Assembly: GCF_003259525.1 (NCBI RefSeq)
Contig: NZ_QLLO01000003.1
Coordinates: 248,748-312,747 of the forward strand
Direction: 5' to 3'
Source of the DNA: Olleya aquimaris
Lineage (GTDB): Bacteria; Bacteroidota; Bacteroidia; Flavobacteriales; Flavobacteriaceae
Length of the DNA: 64,000 nt
Each line of letters opens with the position of its first letter. Position 1 is the first letter of the stretch. The position numbers and the translations under genes are program-made. Shown in pieces: positions 12,656 to 25,111 of this stretch. The notes under the pieces were generated by a model that saw nothing but the letters and a program-made list of their open reading frames with translations, had not been told where the DNA came from and searched no databases.

Positions 12656-15600
12656 TTACTTATTATACTTCTTAAAATTTTCAGCCTGTTCAAAAATCTC
12701 TTTAAAAACCTCATCTTTAGTAATTGGTGGATAATCGTTTTCAGCTAAAAGAATTATTAAATCTACTTTTAACTCGGCTTTTATATCGTCTCGATGATTC
12801 CAGTCTGTATATTTTGCTTTATCATCTACTACTTTTTTCACTTCTTTGGCTAGATGAATTAATTTATCTTCTGGGTAATCGAAGTCATATTTATGTGCTA
12901 TAGCTTTTAAAATATCGTAAAAAGCTTTTTCTTCAAAATCGATACCTATATCAGAAAATGAATTTTTTTCCTTTCTAAGGTCATGATACAAGTCTATGAT
13001 TTCATCTGTAAAGTCTTCTAAAACGTTACTCTGTAAAATATCATTTTCACTACGCTCATTGTATTTATCTACGATGGTTTTAAACTTTTTAGAAAAGTCT
13101 ATACCTTGCATTTTATTGGTTTTCTTTAATGCATCAATCGCTTTTAAAAGTAATTGTTGCAATAGTTTTATTTTAGTATTGGGTAATTTTATTTTTTCAA
13201 TTTTGGCTAAATAAGCCTCATCAAAAATATCAATCTCACTTTGTTTATCTTCTCCTAATTTAAAAATCTCCTCTACACCATCACTTAGTAAGGCTTCTTT
13301 TATCATTTCACGCACTCTAGCATTCATCTGTGCGGTATCTGGTGCATTGCCTTTTGTTAGTTTAAATACAATAGAACGAATGGCAAGGTAAAAATGTATA
13401 TGGTCTTTTTGTTCTTCGGTAAATGCATTGGCACTACAACAGATATCATAAGCTACTTTTAAACGTTTTACAATATTCATAAAACGTGTTTCAATATTTT
13501 TTGTTAGCTGTACATATTCAGCACCATTATTAAGACACTCCAATTGTTTAACACCAACTCCAGAAAAATAATCTGATGCGTCAAACTTATGAAAGAGTTT
13601 TGCTAATAAATCCAACTGATCTTTTACCACCACTATAGACGTTTGTATGTCTTCAAAATTCTGACCATCTACTGCAGAGTATTGCTTTAAAGCCAAATTC
13701 ATTTGCTTTTTAAAGCCAATATAATCTACCACCAAACCTTTTTCTTTAGACTTGTACTTTCTATTAACTCTAGAGATAGTTTGTATTAAATTGTGTTGCT
13801 GTATAGGTTTATCTATATACATGGTATCTAAAAAAGGGACATCAAAACCTGTTAACCACATATCTACTACAATAGCGATTTTAAAGTTAGATTTTTCGTT
13901 TTTAAATTGTCGGTCTAATTCTTTTCTATCTTCTTTAGTACCTAAAAGGTTATACATTTCTTTAGGATCGTCCTTACCTCGTGTCATTATCATTTTAATG
14001 CGCTCCATAGGTTTGATTTCCTTTTTCTCTTTTTCTGTAAGCATAGAACCTTCTTCAAATGCTTTTACTTCTGCCCATTGGGGACGTAAAGCAATAATTT
14101 CTTTGTATAAATTAAATGCAATTGGTCTTGAACTACAAACAAATAAAGCTTTCCCTTTTATAGTTGCACCTTCTTCTATTCTGGTCTCATAATGTTTTAC
14201 AAAATCTTCAGCTACTGCTTTAAGCCGATCTGGATCGCCAATAATAGCATTCATATTTGCTGATGCTTTTTTACTTTCTTCTATTTGGTAATCGTTAGCT
14301 CCATCTTCTGCACATTGATTATAATAATCTTCTATTTCTTCTAGTTTAGAGTTCTCTAAGACTACTTTAGCTGCACGACCTTCATACACAATACGTACTG
14401 TAATTTCGTCTTTTTCAGACTCAGTCATGGTATACGAATCTATAATATCTCCAAAGACATTTAATGTGGCATCAATGGGTGTACCTGTAAAACCAACATA
14501 GGTGGCGTTTGGCAAAGAGTCGTGCAAATACTTAGCAAAACCATAAGTCTTTTTTACACCATCTTCTGTTACAGTTATTTTTTGATCTAAGTTAATTTGA
14601 CTACGATGTGCTTCGTCTGAAATACAAATTACATTGGTACGCTCTGTTAACAATTCTAAGTCTTCCGTAAATTTATGAATGGTAGTTAAAAATACGCCAC
14701 CGCTCTTTCTTCCTTTTAGTAGTTCTTTTAACTCTTTTCTACTTTCAACACTAATAATACTATTGTCTCCTATGTATTGTTTTGCATTGGTAAATTGTGC
14801 GGATAATTGATCGTCTAAATCGGTACGGTCTGTAATAATAATTAGCGTTGGACTTTTAAAATGTGGACTACGCATTAACAATCTAGACAAAAACAACATA
14901 GTATAACTTTTACCACAACCTGTAGCTCCAAAATAAGTTCCACCCTTTCCGTCGCCTTCTGGTTTTTGGTGCTCCTTTATGTTTTCTAATAATTTTGTAG
15001 CTGCATAATATTGCGGATAACGACATACTATTTTAAGCTCGTGTTTATTAGAATCTGGAAAGTATATAAAATTATGAATGACCTCACGAAGTCTGTTTTT
15101 GTTAAATAAACCTTGTATCATGGTGTACATACTATTAATACCATCAACTTCTTTGTCTAAACCTAATACTTTTCGCCATGCGTAGTAAAACTCGTAATTA
15201 CTAAAAAAAGATCCCATTTTACTATTAACACCATCGCTAATAATACAAAACGCATTGTATTTAAATAATTCTGGTATATCACGTCTGTAACGCGTAGTTA
15301 ATTGTACATAGGCATCGTGTATGGTTGTGTTTTCTCGAATAGCTGTTTTAAATTCAAAAACTACTAAAGGCATACCATTTATATATAATATACCATCTGG
15401 AATACGCTTTTCATATCCATAGATTTCTAATTGATTTACTATTTTATAGGTGTTGTTGTCTTTATGTGAATAATCTATAAGATGAATGTATAAGTCTTTT
15501 TTAGAACGGTCTTCGCGCTCTAACTGAAAGCCATTACACACCAATTTCATGATTTGTTTGTTAGACTCGTACAAATCTGAAGCACTAAACACTTCTAGCT

Positions 15601-15799
15601 TACGGATTACCGAATTAATTTCGGCATCTGTAATTTGTTCGTTTTTATATTGGCTTTGTAAATAGGTTTTTATATCCGCTTTAATAAGCACTTCTTCTTG
15701 TTTGCGTGTAATAGTATTACCCAAAACATGCGGAATCCCTTCGTTACCCAATAACTCTATAAAAACGTTTTCTAGTTGTGCTTCTGTGAATTTGTTCAT
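12656..15799 (-). CDS. hsdR: Type I restriction endonuclease subunit R
   Basis: 1047 aa, full length. N-terminal nuclease domain with PD at 134-135 and ExK (EFK) at 149-151. SF2 motor with Walker A GATGCGKS (291-298), DEAH box (395-398) and TGTP motif III (438-441), followed by the second RecA-like domain and a helical tail that docks on the methylase. It cuts unmodified DNA after translocation. In this operon it is the last of nine genes, 20 bp after the DUF262 gene and about 5.3 kb downstream of hsdS, so the modification subunits are made before the nuclease. Confidence 0.95.
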   Translation of the reverse strand: MNKFTEAQLENVFIELLGNEGIPHVLGNTITRKQEEVLIKADIKTYLQSQYKNEQITDAEINSVIRKLEVFSASDLYESNKQIMKLVCNGFQLEREDRSKKDLYIHLIDYSHKDNNTYKIVNQLEIYGYEKRIPDGILYINGMPLVVFEFKTAIRENTTIHDAYVQLTTRYRRDIPELFKYNAFCIISDGVNSKMGSFFSNYEFYYAWRKVLGLDKEVDGINSMYTMIQGLFNKNRLREVIHNFIYFPDSNKHELKIVCRYPQYYAATKLLENIKEHQKPEGDGKGGTYFGATGCGKSYTMLFLSRLLMRSPHFKSPTLIIITDRTDLDDQLSAQFTNAKQYIGDNSIISVESRKELKELLKGRKSGGVFLTTIHKFTEDLELLTERTNVICISDEAHRSQINLDQKITVTEDGVKKTYGFAKYLHDSLPNATYVGFTGTPIDATLNVFGDIIDSYTMTESEKDEITVRIVYEGRAAKVVLENSKLEEIEDYYNQCAEDGANDYQIEESKKASANMNAIIGDPDRLKAVAEDFVKHYETRIEEGATIKGKALFVCSSRPIAFNLYKEIIALRPQWAEVKAFEEGSMLTEKEKKEIKPMERIKMIMTRGKDDPKEMYNLLGTKEDRKELDRQFKNEKSNFKIAIVVDMWLTGFDVPFLDTMYIDKPIQQHNLIQTISRVNRKYKSKEKGLVVDYIGFKKQMNLALKQYSAVDGQNFEDIQTSIVVVKDQLDLLAKLFHKFDASDYFSGVGVKQLECLNNGAEYVQLTKNIETRFMNIVKRLKVAYDICCSANAFTEEQKDHIHFYLAIRSIVFKLTKGNAPDTAQMNARVREMIKEALLSDGVEEIFKLGEDKQSEIDIFDEAYLAKIEKIKLPNTKIKLLQQLLLKAIDALKKTNKMQGIDFSKKFKTIVDKYNERSENDILQSNVLEDFTDEIIDLYHDLRKEKNSFSDIGIDFEEKAFYDILKAIAHKYDFDYPEDKLIHLAKEVKKVVDDKAKYTDWNHRDDIKAELKVDLIILLAENDYPPITKDEVFKEIFEQAENFKKYNK

Positions 15800-15819
15800 C
15801 TCTTAAATTTTATAAAAGT

Positions 15820-17556
15820 CTAATTCTTCCAAACTTTTATTGCATTATGCGCTAAAAATCTAGCACGTTCTTCAATTATTTCTTCATTCCATTCTGAACG
15901 TTCTAAGAAGTCACCCATAGTTTCTATACCTCGTGCAAAACGTTTTAAACCACCACGCTCTCCTCTTCCATTTAATTTAGTTTCCCAATTGGCATCTCTA
16001 ATAGATGAATTTAATGATGAAGTTATTATTGCTAAATTCCCTAATGTTAAAAGCTTTCTATTTCTATTAATTTTTGCTTCTTCAGTATCTAATTTCTCCC
16101 AATTATTTTCCCATTTCTTTGGCATTAAATGCTCTAAACTATAAGAAGTTAGACCTAACAAAGCTGTTGATTGTGACGAGCGGTCTCGAATTTTAGATTC
16201 TAACATATAAAGAATACCACGAGTTTGACGATTAATTATTTTTGAATTTTGAAAACCATCAGACACTTCTTTATGAGAAGGCATATAATTTACTTGTCCT
16301 TCTAATGAATCTAAATATGCTTTTAAATCTTTTGAAGTTTTTATATTTCTACCAATAAAACGGTCTGTAAATAATTGATTATAGTTTTTATTAGAAGCTC
16401 TACAAATTATTCGTCTCATGATATAAGACTCTAATATTTCAAAAATCTTATTTCTTTCTTCATCTATTTCTACATTGTCATCTGTTGGTGCTGTGTTTTT
16501 TAAAACATATAAAACATAAGGTATTAATGTAGTGTTTTCTAATCCAAAAATTAAGGTGTTTATACGTTCTATACCAGCTTCCTCTGGTAATTCTTCTTCA
16601 ATATCAGAATATAAAATATCATCATAATACAAGGTAGCATATTCTTTAATTTCTTGGATAATCTCCTTCTTATCTATATTATAATTTTCTATAAACGATT
16701 TATAAGATTCAAACAAACCATCAAATTTAGTATACACTAACTTATCTTCTGTTTTTACCTTTATGTTAGGTGCATTAATTTTTATTTGTAAAAACGCATA
16801 AAAAAACAATTCTATATTTTGGCGTTTTTGTCTACCAGCTAAAACTTCATATTCCCAAAAATCTACCGTTTCATCATCTTTTTCAAAAATTGGTTTCCAA
16901 TTAGTTTCGTAATCTTCAACATCCTCTCTTCCAAAAAAGAAATTTTTTAATAATTCTGCTACTGTTAATCTTACACCTAAAGAGTTTATAGTGTCAAAAA
17001 TCTGTTGTTCATCTTCTTTCTCATCTAAATCAATACCAACAAACATTATGTTGTTCATAATTCTGTCGTAATCTAAACTTCGCTTGCTAATATGTTTTCT
17101 AAAATAATTATAACATTCTATTATTTTACCATTGCCATTAAGCTCAATCAATTCATTTAAGTCAAGAACTTTATTAAAACTATCAATATCATGATGGTTA
17201 TGCCTTAATGCAATGTCTTTTTCTTTATTTAAAATTCTAAATCTGCCATCAAACTTAAACGCATCTCCTGTATGTAAACACAATACTTTAAAAAAGATAC
17301 TTAGAGTAGTTAAACGTTGTTGGCCATCTACAACAGACCTAACATCGCCTACCGTCTCAGAAGTTGTTGTAGGCTTTTGTTTTAAAATTACTGAGCCTAA
17401 AAAATAAGGTTTGTTAGATTTAGAGATTAGCTCCATATCGTCTAACAAACGTTCCCATTGTGCATCATCCCAAACATAAGCACGTTGAAAAAATGGAATT
17501 TCTAAAATACGTCCTCCATTAAAGACATCACTCACTAATTTTTTACTAGCATTCAT
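15820..17556 (-). CDS. GmrSD-like protein (DUF262 + DUF1524)
   Basis: 578 aa. The DUF262 (GmrS-like, ParB/sulfiredoxin-type NTPase) half has PFFQRAYVW at 21-29 and VVDGQQRLTTL at 76-86. The C-terminal DUF1524 (GmrD-like, HNH/His-Me nuclease) half has LEHLMPK at 474-480 with catalytic-candidate His476 and conserved Asn residues after it. GmrSD enzymes are type IV restriction nucleases that cut modified phage DNA. Here it sits 21 bp behind the 189-aa gene and 20 bp before hsdR, inside the type I operon. A type IV activity would complement the type I system by attacking phages with modified bases; this is inference from the family. Confidence 0.85.
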   Translation of the reverse strand: MNASKKLVSDVFNGGRILEIPFFQRAYVWDDAQWERLLDDMELISKSNKPYFLGSVILKQKPTTTSETVGDVRSVVDGQQRLTTLSIFFKVLCLHTGDAFKFDGRFRILNKEKDIALRHNHHDIDSFNKVLDLNELIELNGNGKIIECYNYFRKHISKRSLDYDRIMNNIMFVGIDLDEKEDEQQIFDTINSLGVRLTVAELLKNFFFGREDVEDYETNWKPIFEKDDETVDFWEYEVLAGRQKRQNIELFFYAFLQIKINAPNIKVKTEDKLVYTKFDGLFESYKSFIENYNIDKKEIIQEIKEYATLYYDDILYSDIEEELPEEAGIERINTLIFGLENTTLIPYVLYVLKNTAPTDDNVEIDEERNKIFEILESYIMRRIICRASNKNYNQLFTDRFIGRNIKTSKDLKAYLDSLEGQVNYMPSHKEVSDGFQNSKIINRQTRGILYMLESKIRDRSSQSTALLGLTSYSLEHLMPKKWENNWEKLDTEEAKINRNRKLLTLGNLAIITSSLNSSIRDANWETKLNGRGERGGLKRFARGIETMGDFLERSEWNEEIIEERARFLAHNAIKVWKN

Positions 17557-17577
17557 TGATTATAGCGTGTTTTTATA

Positions 17578-18147
17578 TTATATAGTTTTTTCTGGAATAT
17601 TTAATTCTATATTGAAAGTTTTACAATAATTAGAAAAGTCTCGTAATTGCTTCAAAGCCTCATCTTGAGTAAAAAAACAATCTAAAGCGTAGTTTTTAAA
17701 TACTAATTTTTTATCTTCAGATGCACCAAGTGTAGTTTTTGTAGATGCGGATAAAAGCGGAAAATTTCTATCTAAATCTCCTGCAACAAATATTAATTCT
17801 GTTTTAGACGTTTCTACTGGTTTAAATTGTTCTATATCTAACTCGTTAATTTTATTTTGTGCTTTAGCTTCATAAAATCCAGAGTCGTTTTTTAAAACTA
17901 CAGAAAACTGTATAGGATTTTCATTATCCTTACCTTCAAATCTAAAGTCGTAGCAATACATATAAATCCAGTCCCAAGCCCAATGATTTAAACCATTTCC
18001 AGATTTTGAACTAAATAATGGCTTTCCTTTTTTAAATGGTAAATCATAGGTCTCACCAATAAACTTCATTAAGTCTAATATGCGTCTTTGATAATCGTAA
18101 AGTAACCTATAAGCTTTACGTATTTCTAATGGTAAATTATCTTTCAT
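17578..18147 (-). CDS. Unknown protein, defence-cassette gene C
   Basis: 189 aa, soluble, no signal peptide. I do not recognise the family. Features visible are an N-terminal helix pair (LLYDYQRRILDLMKFIGETY), an aromatic patch (NHWAWDWIYMYCYDF near 54-68) and a mixed alpha/beta remainder. It overlaps the preceding PD-(D/E)xK gene by 11 bp, so translation is probably coupled and the two products may act together. Function is not assigned. Confidence 0.75.
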   Translation of the reverse strand: MKDNLPLEIRKAYRLLYDYQRRILDLMKFIGETYDLPFKKGKPLFSSKSGNGLNHWAWDWIYMYCYDFRFEGKDNENPIQFSVVLKNDSGFYEAKAQNKINELDIEQFKPVETSKTELIFVAGDLDRNFPLLSASTKTTLGASEDKKLVFKNYALDCFFTQDEALKQLRDFSNYCKTFNIELNIPEKTI

Positions 18148-18808
18148 AATTAAAATTAAAGCTTTGTATCGCTTTAGTATTTATAGTAAATATTTCACAT
18201 TCTTGTAACCACATTTTTTGATGAAACCCATGCATTGCAAATACATTTATTATATCTTCAAACAACAAAATTGTTGGTTTTTGATTTGGAATGCTTTGCT
18301 CTAAGTAGCTCTTATAAATAGTATCTATACTTTTTAGTAAACTTGTCCAATTGGTTTTGGATTGCAAAACCTTAATATTATTTATTATAAAATCTTCTTT
18401 CTTACAATTAATATCCAAACCACCAAGTTGTATTAAATACACTGTTTTTTGGTCATCTATATACTCATTTAAATAAGCTTTTATCTCGTTTTTTAATTGG
18501 TAATTACTTTGTTGATTAACATCATAACGTTTGGCTTCAATAATTAAATCAAAATCTTTAAAACGCATAAATACATCTGGCTCTACATAGTTTTTATTAC
18601 TTGTATTTTTTGCATTCCATTTTGCCCAATACTGTATGTCTAAAATCTCACCACAATAACTAGGTAAATGGTCTTGGTGTAAGGCTTGTTTTAAAATATG
18701 CCAAAACAAATCTGTTGGTAAATATTTAAGTAAATCGAACACTGACGCTGTTAAACTATCTTCACAGACATCTAATTTGCCTTTACCATATTTAAAATAG
18801 GATATCAT
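18137..18808 (-). CDS. Putative PD-(D/E)xK nuclease, defence-cassette gene B
   Basis: 223 aa. The pattern of a PD-(D/E)xK restriction-like core is visible: Glu16 in the first helix (CEDSLTASVFDLL), EPD at 76-78 with Asp78 and EAK at 91-93 on the next strand (LIIEAKRYD). The rest is alpha/beta with YLIQLGGLD as a later core strand. It lies 2 bp after the 172-aa gene and overlaps the 189-aa gene by 11 bp. A nuclease role is inferred from the motif; no close named family was recognised. Confidence 0.7.
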   Translation of the reverse strand: MISYFKYGKGKLDVCEDSLTASVFDLLKYLPTDLFWHILKQALHQDHLPSYCGEILDIQYWAKWNAKNTSNKNYVEPDVFMRFKDFDLIIEAKRYDVNQQSNYQLKNEIKAYLNEYIDDQKTVYLIQLGGLDINCKKEDFIINNIKVLQSKTNWTSLLKSIDTIYKSYLEQSIPNQKPTILLFEDIINVFAMHGFHQKMWLQECEIFTINTKAIQSFNFNYER

Positions 18809-18810
18809 AA

Positions 18811-19329
18811 TTATCTTCTATCAAAATTAACCAACTCCCATTGTGCAATGCTTTGCTGGCTCTCTTTGGCTTTACCTCTTATATCTTGAATAATTTGCAT
18901 ATAGGTATCCGCACATTCTAACTGTGTCCAATTCACTAAAGGTTGCTTGTATAAGCGTTGTTGTATAATTCTGTCTACAGGGCAATGTGGTGGTTGTGGT
19001 ATGATACCCAAACACCAGTAATATTTTAAAACCAGATTAAGTAATTTTTGGCTGACACCGATATTAATAGCTGCTTTTAATACATGACTAAAGTTTTCTG
19101 TAAACCTACTTATGGCTTGTATATTTTCTAGATGAATGCTATCCTCAGTTATTGGCGTTTGGTATTGACTTACAATAGTATTCTCTACATAACCTCTTAG
19201 CTTGTTTCTAAAATAGGTGCGTTCTTTTTCTTTTGTCTTAGGTTTGTAAATACCTGTGTGCTGAAACGCACCACCAAAGGTGAGTAACCAAATTTCTTCT
19301 ATTAAAAAGGCTTGTTGTTGATTATCCAT
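18811..19329 (-). CDS. Unknown protein, defence-cassette gene A
   Basis: 172 aa, mostly helical, soluble. A striking run CLGIIPQPPHCPVDRIIQ lies near residues 115-132, followed by NWTQLECADTYMQII. I do not know a function. It lies 14 bp after the OLD-family gene and 2 bp before the PD-(D/E)xK gene, so it is part of one transcript with both. The tight spacing with genes B and C suggests a three-gene module. Confidence 0.7.
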   Translation of the reverse strand: MDNQQQAFLIEEIWLLTFGGAFQHTGIYKPKTKEKERTYFRNKLRGYVENTIVSQYQTPITEDSIHLENIQAISRFTENFSHVLKAAINIGVSQKLLNLVLKYYWCLGIIPQPPHCPVDRIIQQRLYKQPLVNWTQLECADTYMQIIQDIRGKAKESQQSIAQWELVNFDRR

Positions 19330-19343
19330 TTAGCAATTCACTT

Positions 19344-21137
19344 TTAACTAATTATTTTCTCTAAAAAATCTATTAATTCTTGTTCCAACACCTCTTCAAA
19401 TTGTTCTTTAGTCATTGAATTGAAAATATTAATATTGTCTTTCTTCTTTATTCCTTTTTCCTTAAAAAACTCTTGTAAATCTTCATCCTCTCCAAAAAAA
19501 TGAATTTCATAAGGTTTTAATCTAAAATAGAAATCTTCTAAAACTCTTGGATGATAATAACTTTCAAGGTTAGATTTATGCAAAGCATAACCAGTACCAA
19601 AATTAGAATTGAAATTAACAATTGATTGAGCTTGAATTAGTGGCTTTTTAGGGTTTCTTATCGATAACCCTTTATCACTATCTAATAACAAAAATAGTTC
19701 TCGTCCATTTTTTTTAAAATATGAAATATTAATAAAGCTATCTACACTGCTTCCTCCAGTTGGTAGAACCAAAACATTTTCTTCCAAATCTTTATCAAAA
19801 AGCTTTTGACATATAAGCTTATAAGCGATTGCATCATCTTTACCTTCAACAAAAAGAATTTTCTCAAAACTATCTCTTAGGTTAAACGATGGTTTTATTC
19901 CTAATTCGTCAATAATTTTAAATACAAAATCTTCTTTTGTTGCTTCGGTTGCATATTCGTATACAGTTTGTCCATCTTTTTTACAAAGAATAACAGATTC
20001 TGGATTAGTGGCTCCTGCAAAAACTGGTGAATGCGTTGTAATTACTATTTGATTCTCTTCAGATAATTCTTTTAAAGCATTCAACAAATCTTCTTGAGCA
20101 GATGGATGTAAAAATGTTTCAGGTTCTTCAATTAAATAAACGATATTGTTTCCTTTATTTTTTTCTGCCAAATATCTAAATCTAGCAACCATAAATAAAC
20201 GTCTATAACCAGTTCCTTTATGGCTCATAGGTATAGGATTAGCATCTCCATCAAACTGAAAACGAACATCTACATTTTTTATAGCATCTTTCCATGTTAT
20301 TTGAGGTTTTATTTCAACCTTTTGTAATGATGAAGTATAATCAGACATAAAACTTTTAATTGAATCTGCTTCGTTTTGCATTTCTGCCTCAATCTCATTT
20401 TCTATAACTCGAAGGCGTTGTGTTTCATCTTGTGTTTCTCTGTTGAAGTAATCTGAAATCTCTGTAACAGAATTTGTTTTAAATTTTGTATCGGCTTCTA
20501 ACCCGTAATCTGAAACAAATAGTTCTACTTGAGGAAATAAACTATTAATCTTAAAACTATCTACTATAAATTTACCTTCTATCTGAACACCTTTAGTGAT
20601 AGCGAATTCTTTTATATGTTTTATTTTTTCAATTTTTGAATTTCGTCCTTTTCCTTCAACGGGAATTACTATTGTATTGTCTGCAATAATTTTGTTTAAT
20701 TCTTCGTCAGTTTTAAAATATAAATTAGCAAACTCTTCATCATCAAAATCTTTAATTAATATGGATTCTTTAGTATATACTTTACCCGACTTACTAATTT
20801 CTCTTTCATAAATGATTGTTCCATCAAAAATAAAATCATTTAAAAATTCCTCTAATCCATCAGCCTTTTTAATCTTAGATTTTATTTTGGCTTCTAAAAT
20901 TTCTTTTAAATTAGAATGTTCAAATACTACTTGAAATACAATTGAAGAATCAATATCGTTAAAATCTGAGTCTACAACAGAATAATTTTTAGCATCTAAA
21001 AAAGTAGCAATTGCATTAAGGACTATAGACTTTCCTGCATCGTTTTTACCCACAACAGATGATAAACTTCTAAGAGGTACTTCTTGTTTATTCTTAACAC
21101 CTCTGTAATTCGTAATAGCAATATTTTTTAATTTCAT
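19344..21137 (-). CDS. OLD-family ATPase/TOPRIM nuclease
   Basis: 597 aa. ABC-type ATPase: Walker A GKNDAGKS (30-37), signature-like SHKGTGYRRL (305-314), Walker B VYLIEEPE (333-340), H-loop TTHSP (367-371). C-terminal TOPRIM: LFVEGKDDAIAY (428-439) with the metal-binding Glu, and LLLDSDKG (483-490). OLD proteins and the related GajA subunit of Gabija are phage-defence nucleases. Class 2 OLD/GajA proteins pair with a UvrD-like helicase (GajB); none is present here, so this is a class 1-like or cassette-specific enzyme. It follows hsdS by 10 bp. Confidence 0.9.
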   Translation of the reverse strand: MKLKNIAITNYRGVKNKQEVPLRSLSSVVGKNDAGKSIVLNAIATFLDAKNYSVVDSDFNDIDSSIVFQVVFEHSNLKEILEAKIKSKIKKADGLEEFLNDFIFDGTIIYEREISKSGKVYTKESILIKDFDDEEFANLYFKTDEELNKIIADNTIVIPVEGKGRNSKIEKIKHIKEFAITKGVQIEGKFIVDSFKINSLFPQVELFVSDYGLEADTKFKTNSVTEISDYFNRETQDETQRLRVIENEIEAEMQNEADSIKSFMSDYTSSLQKVEIKPQITWKDAIKNVDVRFQFDGDANPIPMSHKGTGYRRLFMVARFRYLAEKNKGNNIVYLIEEPETFLHPSAQEDLLNALKELSEENQIVITTHSPVFAGATNPESVILCKKDGQTVYEYATEATKEDFVFKIIDELGIKPSFNLRDSFEKILFVEGKDDAIAYKLICQKLFDKDLEENVLVLPTGGSSVDSFINISYFKKNGRELFLLLDSDKGLSIRNPKKPLIQAQSIVNFNSNFGTGYALHKSNLESYYHPRVLEDFYFRLKPYEIHFFGEDEDLQEFFKEKGIKKKDNINIFNSMTKEQFEEVLEQELIDFLEKIIS

Positions 21138-21147
21138 ATAATACTAA

Positions 21148-22305
21148 TTAAGCCTCTACTGTTTTAGTTTCTACTTTTGACATTTTGGAAAGGATTAAAT
21201 CTTTTAATTCATTCAACTTAACTATCTCTTTTAGGTTTAAACGAATTCTTTTAAGCATCCATAATGTTTTTAAACTAAATGATAATACTTCCTCCTTCGA
21301 AAAGCAAGGTATTGGCATATCCAAAATTTCACTTGGTCTAATTCTTTGATGACTATTACTCGTCCCTGTTGCCCTACTGGTTAAATATTCTATTGATTCA
21401 TTCGATTTCAAAACAAAATAAATAAAACCAAATAAATCAATAGTTTTCGGAACGAAAACCAGAAATTCAGTTGAGCAAACAGCATTTTCATTTGCAATAC
21501 CATATATATTCCATACTCTAGGAAAGCGAGGATTTAATTTTGATAATAAAATCGAATTTGATACTACTTTGTATTTATGACTTCTTATTGTTTTGGTTTT
21601 TTCGAATGATGGCAGACCTTTTTCATCATAATTAGGAATACTATAATGTTCTAAAATATCAAACTTGCATTTAGCAGGATGTATGGTTTCTTTTGATTGA
21701 AAAACGAGATCACTTAATAATATATTTTCATTATCAGTATTTTTCTTATCCACAAACCAATGTTTATACAAGGCTTGTGCAGTGTCTTCTAGTTTTTGGT
21801 TTAGGGTTTCGTTTAGTTTAATACGGTTGACGATGGTGTTGTATTCTGCTACTATTTCGCGTTGTTTTTCTATGGATGGGATGGGTAGTTCTAACTCGCA
21901 TAAAGATTCCCAACTAAAACCACCACGAACACTACTATCTGTAGTAAACCAAACGTTTCTATCAAACTCTGAACGTCTGCACCACATCATTAAATATTCT
22001 GGATCTAATTCGTTATGGTCTAATATTTCAAAAACTACATAAGCTGGCGAAACTATTATTGGTTCGTCTTCTAACAACACACTGATTGGTAAAATTTCAT
22101 CACGACCAACGTGCATTGGGTTGTATGCAAACTGATATTTTTCTACAACTCTATATCGCGATAAATCTGTTCCTTGAATATTAGCAACAGATTCCATAAA
22201 TTCTTTATTTATACGAATCCCTTTTAATACAGAAACTGAACCATCAGTATTTTTCTTTTTAATCTGTTTTATGTAATTACCAAGTGGCTTATAATTCGAT
22301 TTCAT
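21148..22305 (-). CDS. hsdS: Type I restriction-modification specificity subunit S
   Basis: 385 aa. Two target-recognition domains (about 1-150 and 200-350) are separated by a conserved helical spacer (EKQREIVAEYNTIVNRIKLNETL, near 160-185), and a second shorter helical segment ends the protein. It binds the bipartite DNA target and directs both methylation and cutting. The start overlaps the end of hsdM by 17 bp, which is usual for translational coupling. The ATG choice gives MKSNYKPLGNYI, a standard HsdS opening. Confidence 0.93.
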   Translation of the reverse strand: MKSNYKPLGNYIKQIKKKNTDGSVSVLKGIRINKEFMESVANIQGTDLSRYRVVEKYQFAYNPMHVGRDEILPISVLLEDEPIIVSPAYVVFEILDHNELDPEYLMMWCRRSEFDRNVWFTTDSSVRGGFSWESLCELELPIPSIEKQREIVAEYNTIVNRIKLNETLNQKLEDTAQALYKHWFVDKKNTDNENILLSDLVFQSKETIHPAKCKFDILEHYSIPNYDEKGLPSFEKTKTIRSHKYKVVSNSILLSKLNPRFPRVWNIYGIANENAVCSTEFLVFVPKTIDLFGFIYFVLKSNESIEYLTSRATGTSNSHQRIRPSEILDMPIPCFSKEEVLSFSLKTLWMLKRIRLNLKEIVKLNELKDLILSKMSKVETKTVEA

Positions 22306-23863
22306 AGCCTAACTCTTTAAATACATTTAACAATTCGGTTTTAGATTTTGCTTCTTCTTTCAATAAATCTGAAAATTCAGATTGTAAAGTTTTCATCTTC
22401 TCATCAAAATTGATGTTCTCGTCTCGGTTAACAAACTCTATATATTTACTTGGTACTAAAGAGTAGTCTTTTTTGCGTATTTCTTCAATGGTTGCAGACT
22501 GACAAAACTCACCAATGTTTTCATAGTTATCTTCATATGACGCTTGTTGCCAATTGTGATATGTTGAAGATATTTTATTTATTTCATCAACGGAAAATTG
22601 AATGTATTTCTTTTCAAATGGTATTCCTACTTTTCTTAAATCAATAAAAAGAGTTTCATCTTCACGATTACGATATTGTTTTTCAACTCCATTAATAATA
22701 ACTGTTCTTTCTTTTTTATTATTATTTAATACCCAAAGTGTAACACTAATATCTGTGGTATAAAACATCTTTTGAGGTAATACCAAGATAGCTTCTACTA
22801 ATTTATTTTCAATGAGTTTTTTACGTATTTCGTATTCGGTTCCTCCACCAGATAATGCACCATTGGCTAGTATAAAACCTGCAACACCATTATCTGAGAG
22901 TTTAGACACCATATTTAGTATCCAAGCATAATTGGCGTTACCTGTTTGTGGTACCTCGTAACCTCGCCAACGTGGGTCGTCTAGTAACTCGTCTGTAGCT
23001 CTCCAATCCTTTTGGTTAAACGGTGGATTTGCCATAATATAATCTGCCTTTAAATCTGGGTGTTGGTCTTTGGCAAAGGTATCTGCTGGCACATCGCCTA
23101 GATTGGCAGAAATACCACGTATGGCAAGGTTCATTTTTGCTAGCTTGTAGGTGGTAGCTGTGTATTCTTGCCCATAAATAGAAACGTCTTTTTTATTACC
23201 ATTGTGGCTGTCTATAAACTTCAGAGACTGTACAAACATACCACCAGAACCACAAGCAGGATCGTAAATTTTACCTTTGTAAGGTTCTATTAACTCTGCA
23301 ATAAGGTTTACAATACTTTTTGGGGTGTAGAATTCGCCTTTACCTTTACCTTCTGCTATAGCAAATTTGCTTAAAAAATACTCGTACACACGACCTACAA
23401 TATCTTGTTGTTGGTCTTTTAAGGTGTCTATATTATTTATGGTGTCTAGTAAAGCTGCTAACTTACTAACGTCCATATTTAGTCGCGAAAAATAATTGTC
23501 TGGTAAGGCACCTTTAAGCGATGGATTGTTTTTTTCTACGGTATATAAAGCGGTATCTATTTTTAAAGCAATATCGTCTTGTTTGGCATTGGCGATGATG
23601 TAGCTCCAACGCGATTCTTCGGTTAGATAGAATACATTGTCTTGCGCATAAAATTCTACCATATCTAGAAACTTCTCTTTACCATCATCAATTAATTCTT
23701 GACGGCGTTTTTGGAATTTATCACTAGCAAATTTTAGGAATATTAAACCTAGTACAACGTGTTTGTATTCTGAGCTTTCTACGGTTCCTCTAAGTTTATT
23801 TGCAGAATCCCAAAGGGTTTCTTCTATAGATTTTGTTTTTTTAGTGGTTGCTTTTATAGCCAT
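22289..23863 (-). CDS. hsdM: Type I restriction-modification methylase subunit M
   Basis: 524 aa. N-terminal HsdM helical domain (about 10-145), then an N6-adenine methyltransferase domain with the SAM motif DPACGSGGM (201-209) and catalytic NPPF (279-282). It methylates the HsdS target to protect host DNA. The gene follows the small HTH-like gene by 3 bp and overlaps hsdS by 17 bp. Confidence 0.97.
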   Translation of the reverse strand: MAIKATTKKTKSIEETLWDSANKLRGTVESSEYKHVVLGLIFLKFASDKFQKRRQELIDDGKEKFLDMVEFYAQDNVFYLTEESRWSYIIANAKQDDIALKIDTALYTVEKNNPSLKGALPDNYFSRLNMDVSKLAALLDTINNIDTLKDQQQDIVGRVYEYFLSKFAIAEGKGKGEFYTPKSIVNLIAELIEPYKGKIYDPACGSGGMFVQSLKFIDSHNGNKKDVSIYGQEYTATTYKLAKMNLAIRGISANLGDVPADTFAKDQHPDLKADYIMANPPFNQKDWRATDELLDDPRWRGYEVPQTGNANYAWILNMVSKLSDNGVAGFILANGALSGGGTEYEIRKKLIENKLVEAILVLPQKMFYTTDISVTLWVLNNNKKERTVIINGVEKQYRNREDETLFIDLRKVGIPFEKKYIQFSVDEINKISSTYHNWQQASYEDNYENIGEFCQSATIEEIRKKDYSLVPSKYIEFVNRDENINFDEKMKTLQSEFSDLLKEEAKSKTELLNVFKELGYEIEL

Positions 23864-23866
23864 GTA

Positions 23867-24100
23867 TTAAATATTGTCTTTTACTGTTACGTATTTTGCT
23901 AGCTTGATACCTTTATTGATTTCTGCAAAATATCTATCAGATATATTAGCTGCAATTGCTATTTCCTTTTTGTTGCTTTTACTTTTTTTTAGTTCTTCCG
24001 CATATTTAATTCCAAATAAATGTATCATTGCTACTGCTTCACCTTTTGGTGCGTTGTGGTACATGTTTTCTAATGCTGCTGCTAATTGGTTGTCTGTCAT
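23867..24100 (-). CDS. Small HTH-like protein leading the type I operon
   Basis: 77 aa. The sequence (HLFGIKYAEEL, then KEIAIAANISDRYFAEINKGIKLAKYV) has the look of the HTH-like proteins often found just before hsdM in Bacteroidota. A helix-turn-helix in the second half is plausible (EIAIAANIS...YFAEINKG). It is the first gene of the operon and could be a controller that sets the level of the downstream genes, as C proteins do in type II systems. That role is inferred; an inverted repeat 116-136 bp upstream of its start is a possible target. Confidence 0.75.
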   Translation of the reverse strand: MTDNQLAAALENMYHNAPKGEAVAMIHLFGIKYAEELKKSKSNKKEIAIAANISDRYFAEINKGIKLAKYVTVKDNI

Positions 24101-24355: not shown

Positions 24356-24411
24356 GCGTAAGAACATTCAAGACCTTATTAAACCTAGCCTAAAAAACGA
24401 GATTCTAGCTG
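24356..24411 (+). repeat. Direct repeat copy R1
   Basis: R1 pairs with R2 (24677-24734). The core 24365-24411 is 39/47 identical to R2, with CGAGATTCTAGCTG fully conserved at the right end and TCAAGACCTTAT near the left. R1 lies inside the candidate sRNA. Confidence 0.8.
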
Positions 24412-24423
24412 TATTTTTAGGCT
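24387..24423 (+). terminator. Intrinsic terminator of the short plus-strand transcript
   Basis: A 10-bp stem (AGCCTAAAAA / TTTTTAGGCT) with a 17-nt loop is followed by seven T residues. It stands about 55-90 nt after the predicted start of transcription. Confidence 0.65.
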
Positions 24424-24666: not shown

Positions 24667-24700
24667 AAGGTCCTGAGCGGTAAGAAACACTCAAGACCTT
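24667..24700 (-). terminator. Intrinsic terminator of the HU-like gene
   Basis: On the minus strand AAGGTCTTGAG pairs with CTCAGGACCTT (11 bp with one G-U pair, 12-nt loop) and is followed by seven T residues. It begins 28 nt past the HU stop codon and separates the HU gene from the defence operon. Confidence 0.8.
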
Positions 24701-24734
24701 ATCAAATCTAACCTGATTTACGAGATTCTAGCTG
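24677..24734 (+). repeat. Direct repeat copy R2, at the HU 3' end
   Basis: Second copy of the repeat described at 24356-24411. It covers the final codons and stop of the HU-like gene and the upstream arm of its terminator. The DNA between R1 and R2 (24412-24676) holds no recognisable gene; one 32-codon frame (24565-24663) has no support. Confidence 0.8.
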
Positions 24735-25111
24735 GCTTTTTTATAGGTTAAATCTGTTAGTAAACTACGTAAGCGTCTACCTGGTCTAAACAAAACACGT
24801 GCTTTAGTAATTAAGCCTGCGTTGACTTCTTCTGGTGTGTCACGACCTTCTGAACTGACACTGACTTGAAAATTACCCAAACGCCCTAATTTTACAATTC
24901 GACCTTGATCAAGCGACCGTATAATATTACGCTCTAATGAAAGTAATACTGCGTAACAGTCAGACTCGGTTACTGTACACTCGTAAGCAATTTGCTCTGA
25001 TAGTACATCTAAATCTACTTCGCCATCTGCTATTGCCGATGCGTAGTACTTCTCAGGTAACGTGATGTCCTGAGGATTTCGTTTGGCTTGCGCCTTAAAT
25101 TTAATTGCCAT
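24728..25111 (-). CDS. HU-like DNA-binding protein (Bacteroidota HU-HIG type)
   Basis: 127 aa, basic. The layout fits the histone-like family of Bacteroidota: KRNPQDITLPEKYYA near the N-terminus, a helical region, GRIVKLGRLGNFQVSVSSEG (residues about 71-90) for the DNA-binding beta arm, and a C-terminal RVLFRPGRRLRSLL. These proteins bind and bend DNA and are frequent in variable genome regions. The gene is monocistronic: its own terminator lies at 24667-24700. Confidence 0.85.
   Translation of the reverse strand: MAIKFKAQAKRNPQDITLPEKYYASAIADGEVDLDVLSEQIAYECTVTESDCYAVLLSLERNIIRSLDQGRIVKLGRLGNFQVSVSSEGRDTPEEVNAGLITKARVLFRPGRRLRSLLTDLTYKKAS

What the first reader, a model, noticed from the sequence alone, without database searches (positions are those of the whole stretch)
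12656..24100. Five-gene accessory defence cassette lodged between hsdS and hsdR of a type I operon
The order HTH-hsdM-hsdS-[OLD nuclease, 172-aa, PD-(D/E)xK 223-aa, 189-aa, DUF262/DUF1524]-hsdR is continuous, one strand, gaps of 2-21 bp or overlaps, so one transcript is likely. It brings together type I restriction, an OLD/TOPRIM nuclease and a GmrSD-like type IV nuclease. Layering type I and type IV activities would restrict both unmodified and modified phage DNA. Genes inserted in type I loci are known; this set is not one I can name. Placing hsdR last also delays the nuclease.
Basis: partly seen in the sequence, partly recalled or inferred. Interest (0 to 1): 0.8.

Follow-up and report, generated by a model that had tools for sequence, protein, structure and literature searches.

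The report
Swappable defence slot inside restriction operon
A marine-type bacterium carries several different antivirus genes packed between two genes of a common DNA-cutting defence system; relatives carry other antivirus systems in the same spot, so the spot behaves like an exchangeable slot rather than one new five-part machine.

Summary
In detail: one-strand, tightly packed HTH-hsdM-hsdS-[OLD, 172-aa, PD-(D/E)xK, 189-aa, GmrSD]-hsdR. The reading "a five-gene cassette" is not. The 223/189-aa pair is the listed candidate PDC-M15A/B; no other locus examined holds all five. Of 27 usable related operons, 25 carry genes just before hsdR and 23 carry recognised defence families there: Thoeris-type, Gabija, Kiwa, CBASS, SIR2-HerA, AbiE, DRT4, RloC-like, OLD. 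Extra genes lie between hsdS and hsdR in 24 of 26 operons, between hsdM and hsdS in 1 of 26. Cargo follows the HsdR tree little better than shuffled labels, and neighbouring genes differ strongly in synonymous divergence (0.01 beside 0.61): a recombination mosaic. The principle is published (rlo genes, TgvAB, DarTG2). Newer: measured turnover in one lineage, and the 172-aa gene, the only cargo of seven tested that clearly tracks HsdR, in R-M operons at 12 of 13 loci, in no known family, with a suggestive, not significant, HhH-GPD-glycosylase-like signature.

The parts
23867..24100 (-). 77-aa HTH-like regulator, first gene of the operon, perhaps RptR-like
   Evidence: Profile of 4 homologues against PDB chains: RptR 9r2z is the only entry listed, E 0.11, positions 1-68 of 74 against residues 1-66 of 79. 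Suggestive only. Found in 2 of 296 genomes of the phylum, own included.
22289..23863 (-). hsdM, type I methyltransferase subunit
   Evidence: Pfam N6_Mtase 340 bits, HsdM_N 81 bits; DPACGSGG and NPPF present.
21148..22305 (-). hsdS, specificity subunit; its stop codon is the left edge of the cargo slot
   Evidence: Pfam Methylase_S; in L006 and L014 its last 84 and 48 bp keep homology while the cargo after it does not.
19344..21137 (-). cargo module 1: OLD-family ATPase-TOPRIM protein, no GajB beside it
   Evidence: AAA_15 142 bits, OLD-like_TOPRIM 25 bits; PADLOC Old 137 bits; PDB 6p74 OLD E 3.4e-14. 60% identical OLD in the slot of L022.
18811..19329 (-). cargo module 2: 172-aa helical protein of unknown family (p172)
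   Evidence: No Pfam, PADLOC or NCBIfam match; R-M operon context in 12 of 13 loci; tracks HsdR tree, 2 of 300 shuffles as good; AlphaFold pLDDT 79, helical.
18137..18808 (-). cargo module 3a: PDC-M15A, PD-(D/E)xK-like motif
   Evidence: PADLOC PDC-M15A 259 bits; EPD and EAK; adjacent to M15B in 8 of 8 copies.
17578..18147 (-). cargo module 3b: PDC-M15B, partner of unknown function
   Evidence: PADLOC PDC-M15B 184 bits; overlaps M15A by 11 bp.
15820..17556 (-). cargo module 4: GmrSD-like (DUF262 + DUF1524) protein
   Evidence: GmrSD_N 129 bits, GmrSD_C 60 bits; QR, DGQQR, FxxxN and HLMPKKW present.
12656..15799 (-). hsdR, type I restriction and translocase subunit; its start codon is the right edge of the slot
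   Evidence: HSDR_N, SWI2_SNF2, T1RH-like_C 315 bits; homology to L006, L007, L014 resumes at 15799 and to L015 at 15814.

Best explanation
The locus is a type I restriction-modification operon whose interval between hsdS and hsdR is a recombination-active cargo slot. In this genome the slot holds a stack of separable defence modules: an OLD protein, the 172-aa protein, the PDC-M15A/B pair and a GmrSD-like protein. Inferred working: one transcript, set by the promoter before the 77-aa regulator, delivers all parts together. HsdMSR cuts DNA that lacks the host mark; the GmrSD-like enzyme cuts DNA with modified bases that HsdMSR cannot cut; OLD and M15AB act as further, independent nuclease-type modules. 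Modules enter and leave by homologous recombination anchored in the conserved hsdM/hsdS and hsdR genes, and at times in shared slot genes such as p172 or a Thoeris-type TIR gene, so a new system gains an existing promoter at once. Shown: gene order, families, cargo turnover, mosaic divergence. Inferred: co-transcription, activity of each module, the recombination route, regulation by the HTH.
For: Anatomy and families. Genes before hsdR in 25 of 27 usable operons, recognised defence families in 23. Position control: extra genes between hsdS and hsdR in 24 of 26, between hsdM and hsdS in 1 of 26. The first-cargo label changes 21 times on a 29-tip HsdR tree (18 labels, so at least 17; 300 shuffles mean 22.3, 35 as low). 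L016 and L017, each 0.011 from their fork, carry RloC-like against Gabija. DNA homology stops at the hsdS end and resumes at the hsdR start. Synonymous differences per site in one strain pair: window-L014 p172 0.15 (95% 0.08-0.23), hsdR 0.53 (0.48-0.58); L007-L014 TIR gene 0.01, hsdR 0.61. Cargo GC 0.28-0.29, hsd ends 0.32-0.33. Published parallels.
Against: No expression data; co-transcription rests on spacing. Activity of OLD, M15AB and p172 is not shown here or in the passages I read. With all OLD/GajA-type first cargo pooled (14 labels) the tree needs 18 changes against a shuffle mean of 20.4, and only 6 of 300 shuffles did as well, so some cargo is inherited. Low synonymous divergence can also come from codon constraint in a short gene, though 0.01 beside 0.61 in one operon is hard to explain so. 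Quick tree, 8 of 26 inner branches under 80 support; labels set by me.
Confidence: 0.8

Rival explanations
1. The five genes form one integrated multi-protein defence system, with OLD, p172, M15AB and GmrSD acting together with HsdMSR.
For: Tight single-strand packing with overlaps; p172 and M15AB also occur together in a second type I operon of the same genome, about 50% identical, and M15AB beside a 61-aa p172 fragment in L106.
Against: No other locus examined holds all five. OLD, p172 and M15AB each occur without the others. In the TgvAB precedent the embedded genes protect independently of HsdR cutting (passage).
Confidence: 0.08
2. p172 is a structural or regulatory accessory of the restriction complex (for instance against phage anti-restriction proteins, or controlling HsdR), not a nuclease or glycosylase. 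This competes only with the glycosylase reading of p172, not with the slot model.
For: p172 is the only one of seven cargo families that clearly tracks HsdR; 12 of 13 loci are R-M operons; it occurs with many different cargoes.
Against: In L061 it follows a C5-methyltransferase (Pfam 251 bits) and no hsdR was seen by BLAST in that stretch. It is absent from 22 of 29 tree operons and broken in L006 (one in-frame stop) and L106 (fragment), so the restriction complex does not need it.
Confidence: 0.35
3. Ordinary defence-island clustering: the genes fell together by chance and the interval has no special properties.
For: Defence genes cluster in general; the hsd operons sit at different chromosomal sites (no flank homology to L006, L007, L014, L015 in the stretches held).
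Against: Cargo lies between hsdS and hsdR in 24 of 26 operons and between hsdM and hsdS in 1 of 26, with edges at the hsdS stop and hsdR start. Gene density outside the operons was not measured. Odds lowered from 0.1 after this control was run.
Confidence: 0.07

Closest known systems
TgvAB in the type I operon of VPI-2 (PMC11411939; passages read)
   Same: GmrSD-family genes embedded among hsd genes; layered restriction of unmodified and modified DNA; anti-phage effect shown by experiment there.
   Different: Two DUF262 proteins needed there, one DUF262-DUF1524 protein here; no OLD, p172 or M15AB named in the passages.
RptR-RMS-DarTG2-M48 island of EPEC (PMC12255303; passages read)
   Same: Small regulator first (79 aa there, 77 here), then hsd genes, defence genes between hsdS and hsdR; [quoted passage not shown]
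   Different: Cargo is a toxin-antitoxin system; the RptR site TAGCTA is absent upstream of the window's HTH (nearest match 25351); homology of the HTH to RptR is only suggestive.
rlo/mlo genes of Campylobacter jejuni hsd loci (PMC5183652 and PMC2928727; passages read; Miller 2005 itself not read)
   Different: Other cargo; no measure of cargo turnover in the passages I read, beyond 'extensive rearrangements' within a family.
PADLOC phage-defence candidate PDC-M15 (Payne 2024 preprint, known to me from recall and from its citation in PMC12988326, passages)
   Same: M15A and M15B match their models over nearly full length.
   Different: No function for M15 in anything I read; p172 has no PADLOC match.

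Membership tests
Type I restriction-modification | HsdM, HsdS and HsdR with catalytic motifs | tested here: met
   Pfam families and motifs.
GmrSD / type IV restriction | DUF262 with QR, DGQQR, FxxxN and DUF1524 H...N motif (list from PMC11411939) | tested here: met
   Domains; motifs.
GmrSD / type IV restriction | Cleaves DNA with modified bases only | not testable with these tools
   Needs biochemistry; the related SspE senses phosphorothioate marks (passage).
OLD nuclease | ATPase domain plus OLD-type TOPRIM | tested here: met
   AAA_15 and OLD-like_TOPRIM above cut-off.
Gabija | GajA followed by GajB UvrD-like helicase (pairing recalled) | tested here: not met
   Next gene is p172, no PADLOC match; none of the listed matches of the eight operon proteins is GajB (long lists are cut at 25).
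PARIS (AriAB) | AriA ATPase with AriB partner (recalled) | tested here: not met
   AriA models match OLD (136 bits); p172, M15A and M15B, whose lists are complete, match no AriB.
PDC-M15 | Adjacent M15A and M15B | tested here: met
   259 and 184 bits, overlapping genes.
RptR regulators | Homology to RptR with conserved Glu58 and Lys61 | tested here: inconclusive
   Only entry listed is 9r2z, E 0.11 (with 3 rows it was second, E 0.36; no hit with one sequence). E60 and K63 invariant in 4 homologues, opposite E and K of RptR in that alignment.
RptR regulators | TAGCTA palindromes in the promoter | tested here: not met
   None within 1 kb upstream; whole-window count 15 against shuffled mean 22.
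HhH-GPD DNA glycosylases (p172) | Significant profile or fold match to the superfamily | tested here: inconclusive
HhH-GPD DNA glycosylases (p172) | GxGxK hairpin followed by PVD aspartate (recalled) | tested here: inconclusive
   G91-V-S-Q-K95 and P117-V-D119 align in register with the family consensus at forced low accuracy; second hairpin Gly absent; D119 invariant in 11 sequences, K95 in 10 of 11.

The most novel reading that the evidence does not exclude
The 172-aa protein is a new kind of restriction-modification accessory: a minimal HhH-GPD-fold DNA glycosylase (K95 and D119 as active-site pair) that travels with type I and C5-methyltransferase operons. It would open a base-excision arm beside restriction, removing modified bases from phage DNA or repairing methylation-linked lesions, while also serving as a homology anchor for swapping defence modules on either side.
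Probability: 0.2. Interest if true: 0.75.

Novelty: new variant of a known kind. Interest (0 to 1): 0.5.

Why it matters
It turns "a defence gene found inside a restriction operon" into something measurable: one operon lineage in one bacterial family whose slot holds about a dozen kinds of defence, with gene-by-gene divergence that orders the exchanges. It gives a cheap search rule (read the hsdS-hsdR interval of related operons) and singles out one unnamed gene that behaves unlike the other cargo tested.

Tried and rejected

16 genomes with weak p172-profile hits (20-25 bits, one place each inside 533-580-aa frames) and one (L004) were treated as chance. In the clusters L006 p172 counts by its 103-aa ORF after the stop. 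Not all cargo was scanned: representatives and some members; the rest by BLAST cluster.
Full report
WHAT IS THERE. The window is a stretch of a 2.95-Mb, 21-contig genome; its nearest named hsd relatives are Winogradskyella, Flavobacteriaceae. The minus strand carries HTH (77 aa), hsdM, hsdS, OLD, a 172-aa gene (p172), a 223-aa gene, a 189-aa gene, a GmrSD-like gene and hsdR, with gaps of 2 to 21 bp or overlaps. Domain searches confirm hsdM, hsdS, hsdR, OLD and GmrSD, and motifs expected of active enzymes are present. PADLOC names the 223- and 189-aa genes as the candidate pair PDC-M15A and PDC-M15B. p172 matches nothing in Pfam, PADLOC or NCBIfam and only a chance-level PHROG (E 0.22).

THE SLOT IN RELATIVES. 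A search of 397 genomes of the same family with HsdR found 30 with E at most 1e-200, own included. Three hits at contig edges or partial were dropped; 26 regions were fetched, giving 27 usable operons with the window. ORF maps show genes before hsdR in 25 of 27; two have none (L030, gap -3 bp; L036, 336 bp without an ORF of 50 aa). In one of the 25 (L019) the contig ends before hsdS. Among the 26 operons with hsdM and hsdS in view (window plus the 25), extra genes lie between hsdS and hsdR in 24 and between hsdM and hsdS in one (L038, a 648-aa gene). In 23 of 27 at least one slot gene belongs to a PADLOC family, directly or by its BLAST cluster: Thoeris-type TIR genes (L014, L021, L028, L034), Gabija (L017 by its twin L008, GajA 711 and GajB 739 bits; L023), RloC-like PDC-S06 (L016), AbiE (L015, L021, L032), SIR2 with HerA (L029, L031), AbiU with DRT4 (L020), OLD-type (window, L019, L022, L024, L025, L026, L027), UG39 reverse transcriptase (L026), AriA-like (L018), Kiwa (L033, KwaA and KwaB), PifA-like (L037) and CBASS (L038: phospholipase, cyclase, E1-E2). 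Without a match: L035 (254 aa) and L039 (199 aa). Three further named relatives agree: L006 and L007 (Winogradskyella; TIR genes, SLOG, p172, further genes) and L009 (Polaribacter; RloC-like, p172, PDC-S26).

TURNOVER AND MOSAICISM. On an HsdR tree of 29 operons the first-cargo class changes 21 times (quick method, 8 of 26 inner branches under 80, labels mine). With 18 labels the least possible is 17; shuffled labels need 22.3 on average, and 35 of 300 shuffles need 21 or fewer, so cargo follows HsdR descent little better than chance. A coarser labelling with all OLD/GajA-type genes pooled shows some inheritance: 18 changes against 20.4, 6 of 300. L016 and L017, each 0.011 from their common fork, hold RloC-like and Gabija cargo. 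DNA comparison with L006, L007, L014 and L015 gives homology in hsdM and the start of hsdS, in L006 and L014 also in the last 84 and 48 bp of hsdS, then none until p172 (L006, L007, L014) and hsdR, which resumes at its start codon or, in L015, 15 bp before it. Synonymous differences per site vary by gene in one strain pair: window-L014 p172 0.15 (95% 0.08-0.23), hsdM 0.42, hsdR 0.53; L007-L014 TIR gene 0.01, hsdM 0.36, hsdR 0.61; L006-L014 hsdR 0.18, hsdM 0.35, SLOG gene 0.43. Genes of one operon thus have different histories, as expected of exchange by homologous recombination. About 6 kb on each side of the window operon gave no match by blastn, tblastx or tblastn of seven flank proteins in the stretches held of L006, L007, L014 and L015 (for L006 and L007 only about 2 kb beyond hsdR was held), so the operon also sits at different sites.

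THE MODULES ARE SEPARABLE. PDC-M15B was found in 7 of 349 family genomes, 8 copies; M15A is adjacent in 8 of 8. Five lie within or at the edge of type I operons (window, L010, L105, L106, L107). L103 has two hsdM-like genes and a weak hsdS match, but helicase genes where hsdR would stand. L102 (beside a leucyl-tRNA synthetase) and L104 show no hsd gene by BLAST to a small reference set in the stretch held. OLD of 56-60% identity lies in the slots of L022 and L027 without p172 or M15. The own genome carries a second, different type I operon (EcoEI-type HsdR C-terminus) with M15A, M15B and p172 about 50% identical to the window's, beside EcsC and a 934-aa gene; p172 follows M15AB there and precedes it here.

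p172. Thirteen distinct loci were seen: window, L006 (one in-frame stop), L007, L008/L017, L009, L010, L011, L012 (here just downstream of hsdR), L014, L016, L060, L061 and a fragment in L106. Eleven are in type I operons, L061 follows a C5-methyltransferase (Pfam 251 bits), and L060 is at a contig end. So 12 of 13 are R-M contexts, with many different cargoes. In the 29-operon tree p172 is present in 7 with 3 changes; 2 of 300 shuffles did as well, while for the six other cargo families tested (TIR, AlbA, PDC-S26, DUF262-b, 343-aa, OLD/GajA) 91 to 300 of 300 did (no correction for seven tests). Two clades carry the signal, so it amounts to few events. Its low synonymous divergence in window-L014 says it is also exchanged within the lineage. 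AlphaFold with only 4 sequences gives a helical model, pLDDT 79; fold searches found nothing significant. Its conserved stretch G-V-S-Q-K...P-V-D aligns in register with the GVGxK...PVD signature of HhH-GPD glycosylases (catalytic roles recalled), but the score is not significant (P 0.2; 1 of 30 shuffled controls higher). I hold this as a lead.

REGULATION. The HTH gene is found in 2 of 296 genomes of the phylum, own included, and among the hsd loci upstream of hsdM only in the window and L006. A 4-row profile lists RptR (9r2z), the repressor of an EPEC type I island, as the only PDB entry, E 0.11; RptR's TAGCTA site is absent. Perhaps a distant relative with another operator.

KNOWN OR NEW. 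Cargo between hsdS and hsdR is known: rlo genes in Campylobacter (PMC5183652, PMC2928727; passages), TgvAB, tested (PMC11411939; passages), DarTG2 with RptR, where the authors call the site a potential recombination hotspot (PMC12255303; passages), and the guilt-by-embedding work behind the PDC names (seen only through PMC12988326, passages, and recall). What I did not find in print (search listings) is the measured turnover in one operon lineage, the gene-by-gene mosaic, and p172. Verdict: a new variant of a known kind; the window's particular set is a snapshot of a changing stack.

Noticed in passing
G000:C1:96000-115900 (L010): The same genome carries a second, different type I operon (EcoEI-type HsdR) with PDC-M15A/B and p172 about 50% identical to the window's, plus an EcsC-family gene and a 934-aa gene without PADLOC match.
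   Followed up: partly
window 24363-24418 and 24686-24741: A 56-nt direct repeat, 82% identical, lies between the HU-HIG gene and the HTH gene; it may be a trace of insertion of the operon beside the HU gene.
   Followed up: no
L113:7964-8596 (G002): An OGG-like (PF21790) gene follows hsdS in another type I operon of the phylum, with hsdR two genes on: a putative glycosylase gene in the same slot.
   Followed up: partly
L061:7208-10411 (G902): A C5-methyltransferase followed by a p172 homologue, preceded by two genes (263 and 222 aa) without Pfam match that may be its restriction partners.
   Followed up: partly
L103:2058-19020 (G637): PDC-M15A/B in an operon with two hsdM-like genes, a DUF262-like gene, an hsdS-like gene and, in place of hsdR, a DEAD-helicase gene overlapping a UvrD/helicase gene; a different system with the same cargo pair.
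   Followed up: no
L006:14130-15155, L024:13060-14091, L010:13017-15821: Slot genes without a family: a 341-aa gene (no Pfam or PADLOC match), a 343-aa family in 4 of 29 operons (no PADLOC match) and a 934-aa gene; guilt-by-embedding candidates.
   Followed up: no
L022:3695-5056 and 8 relatives: An AlbA/Schlafen-type protein with a RecG-C-like domain (one member scanned) recurs in 9 of 29 slots next to different systems, in 7 of the 9 as the last ORF before hsdR.
   Followed up: no
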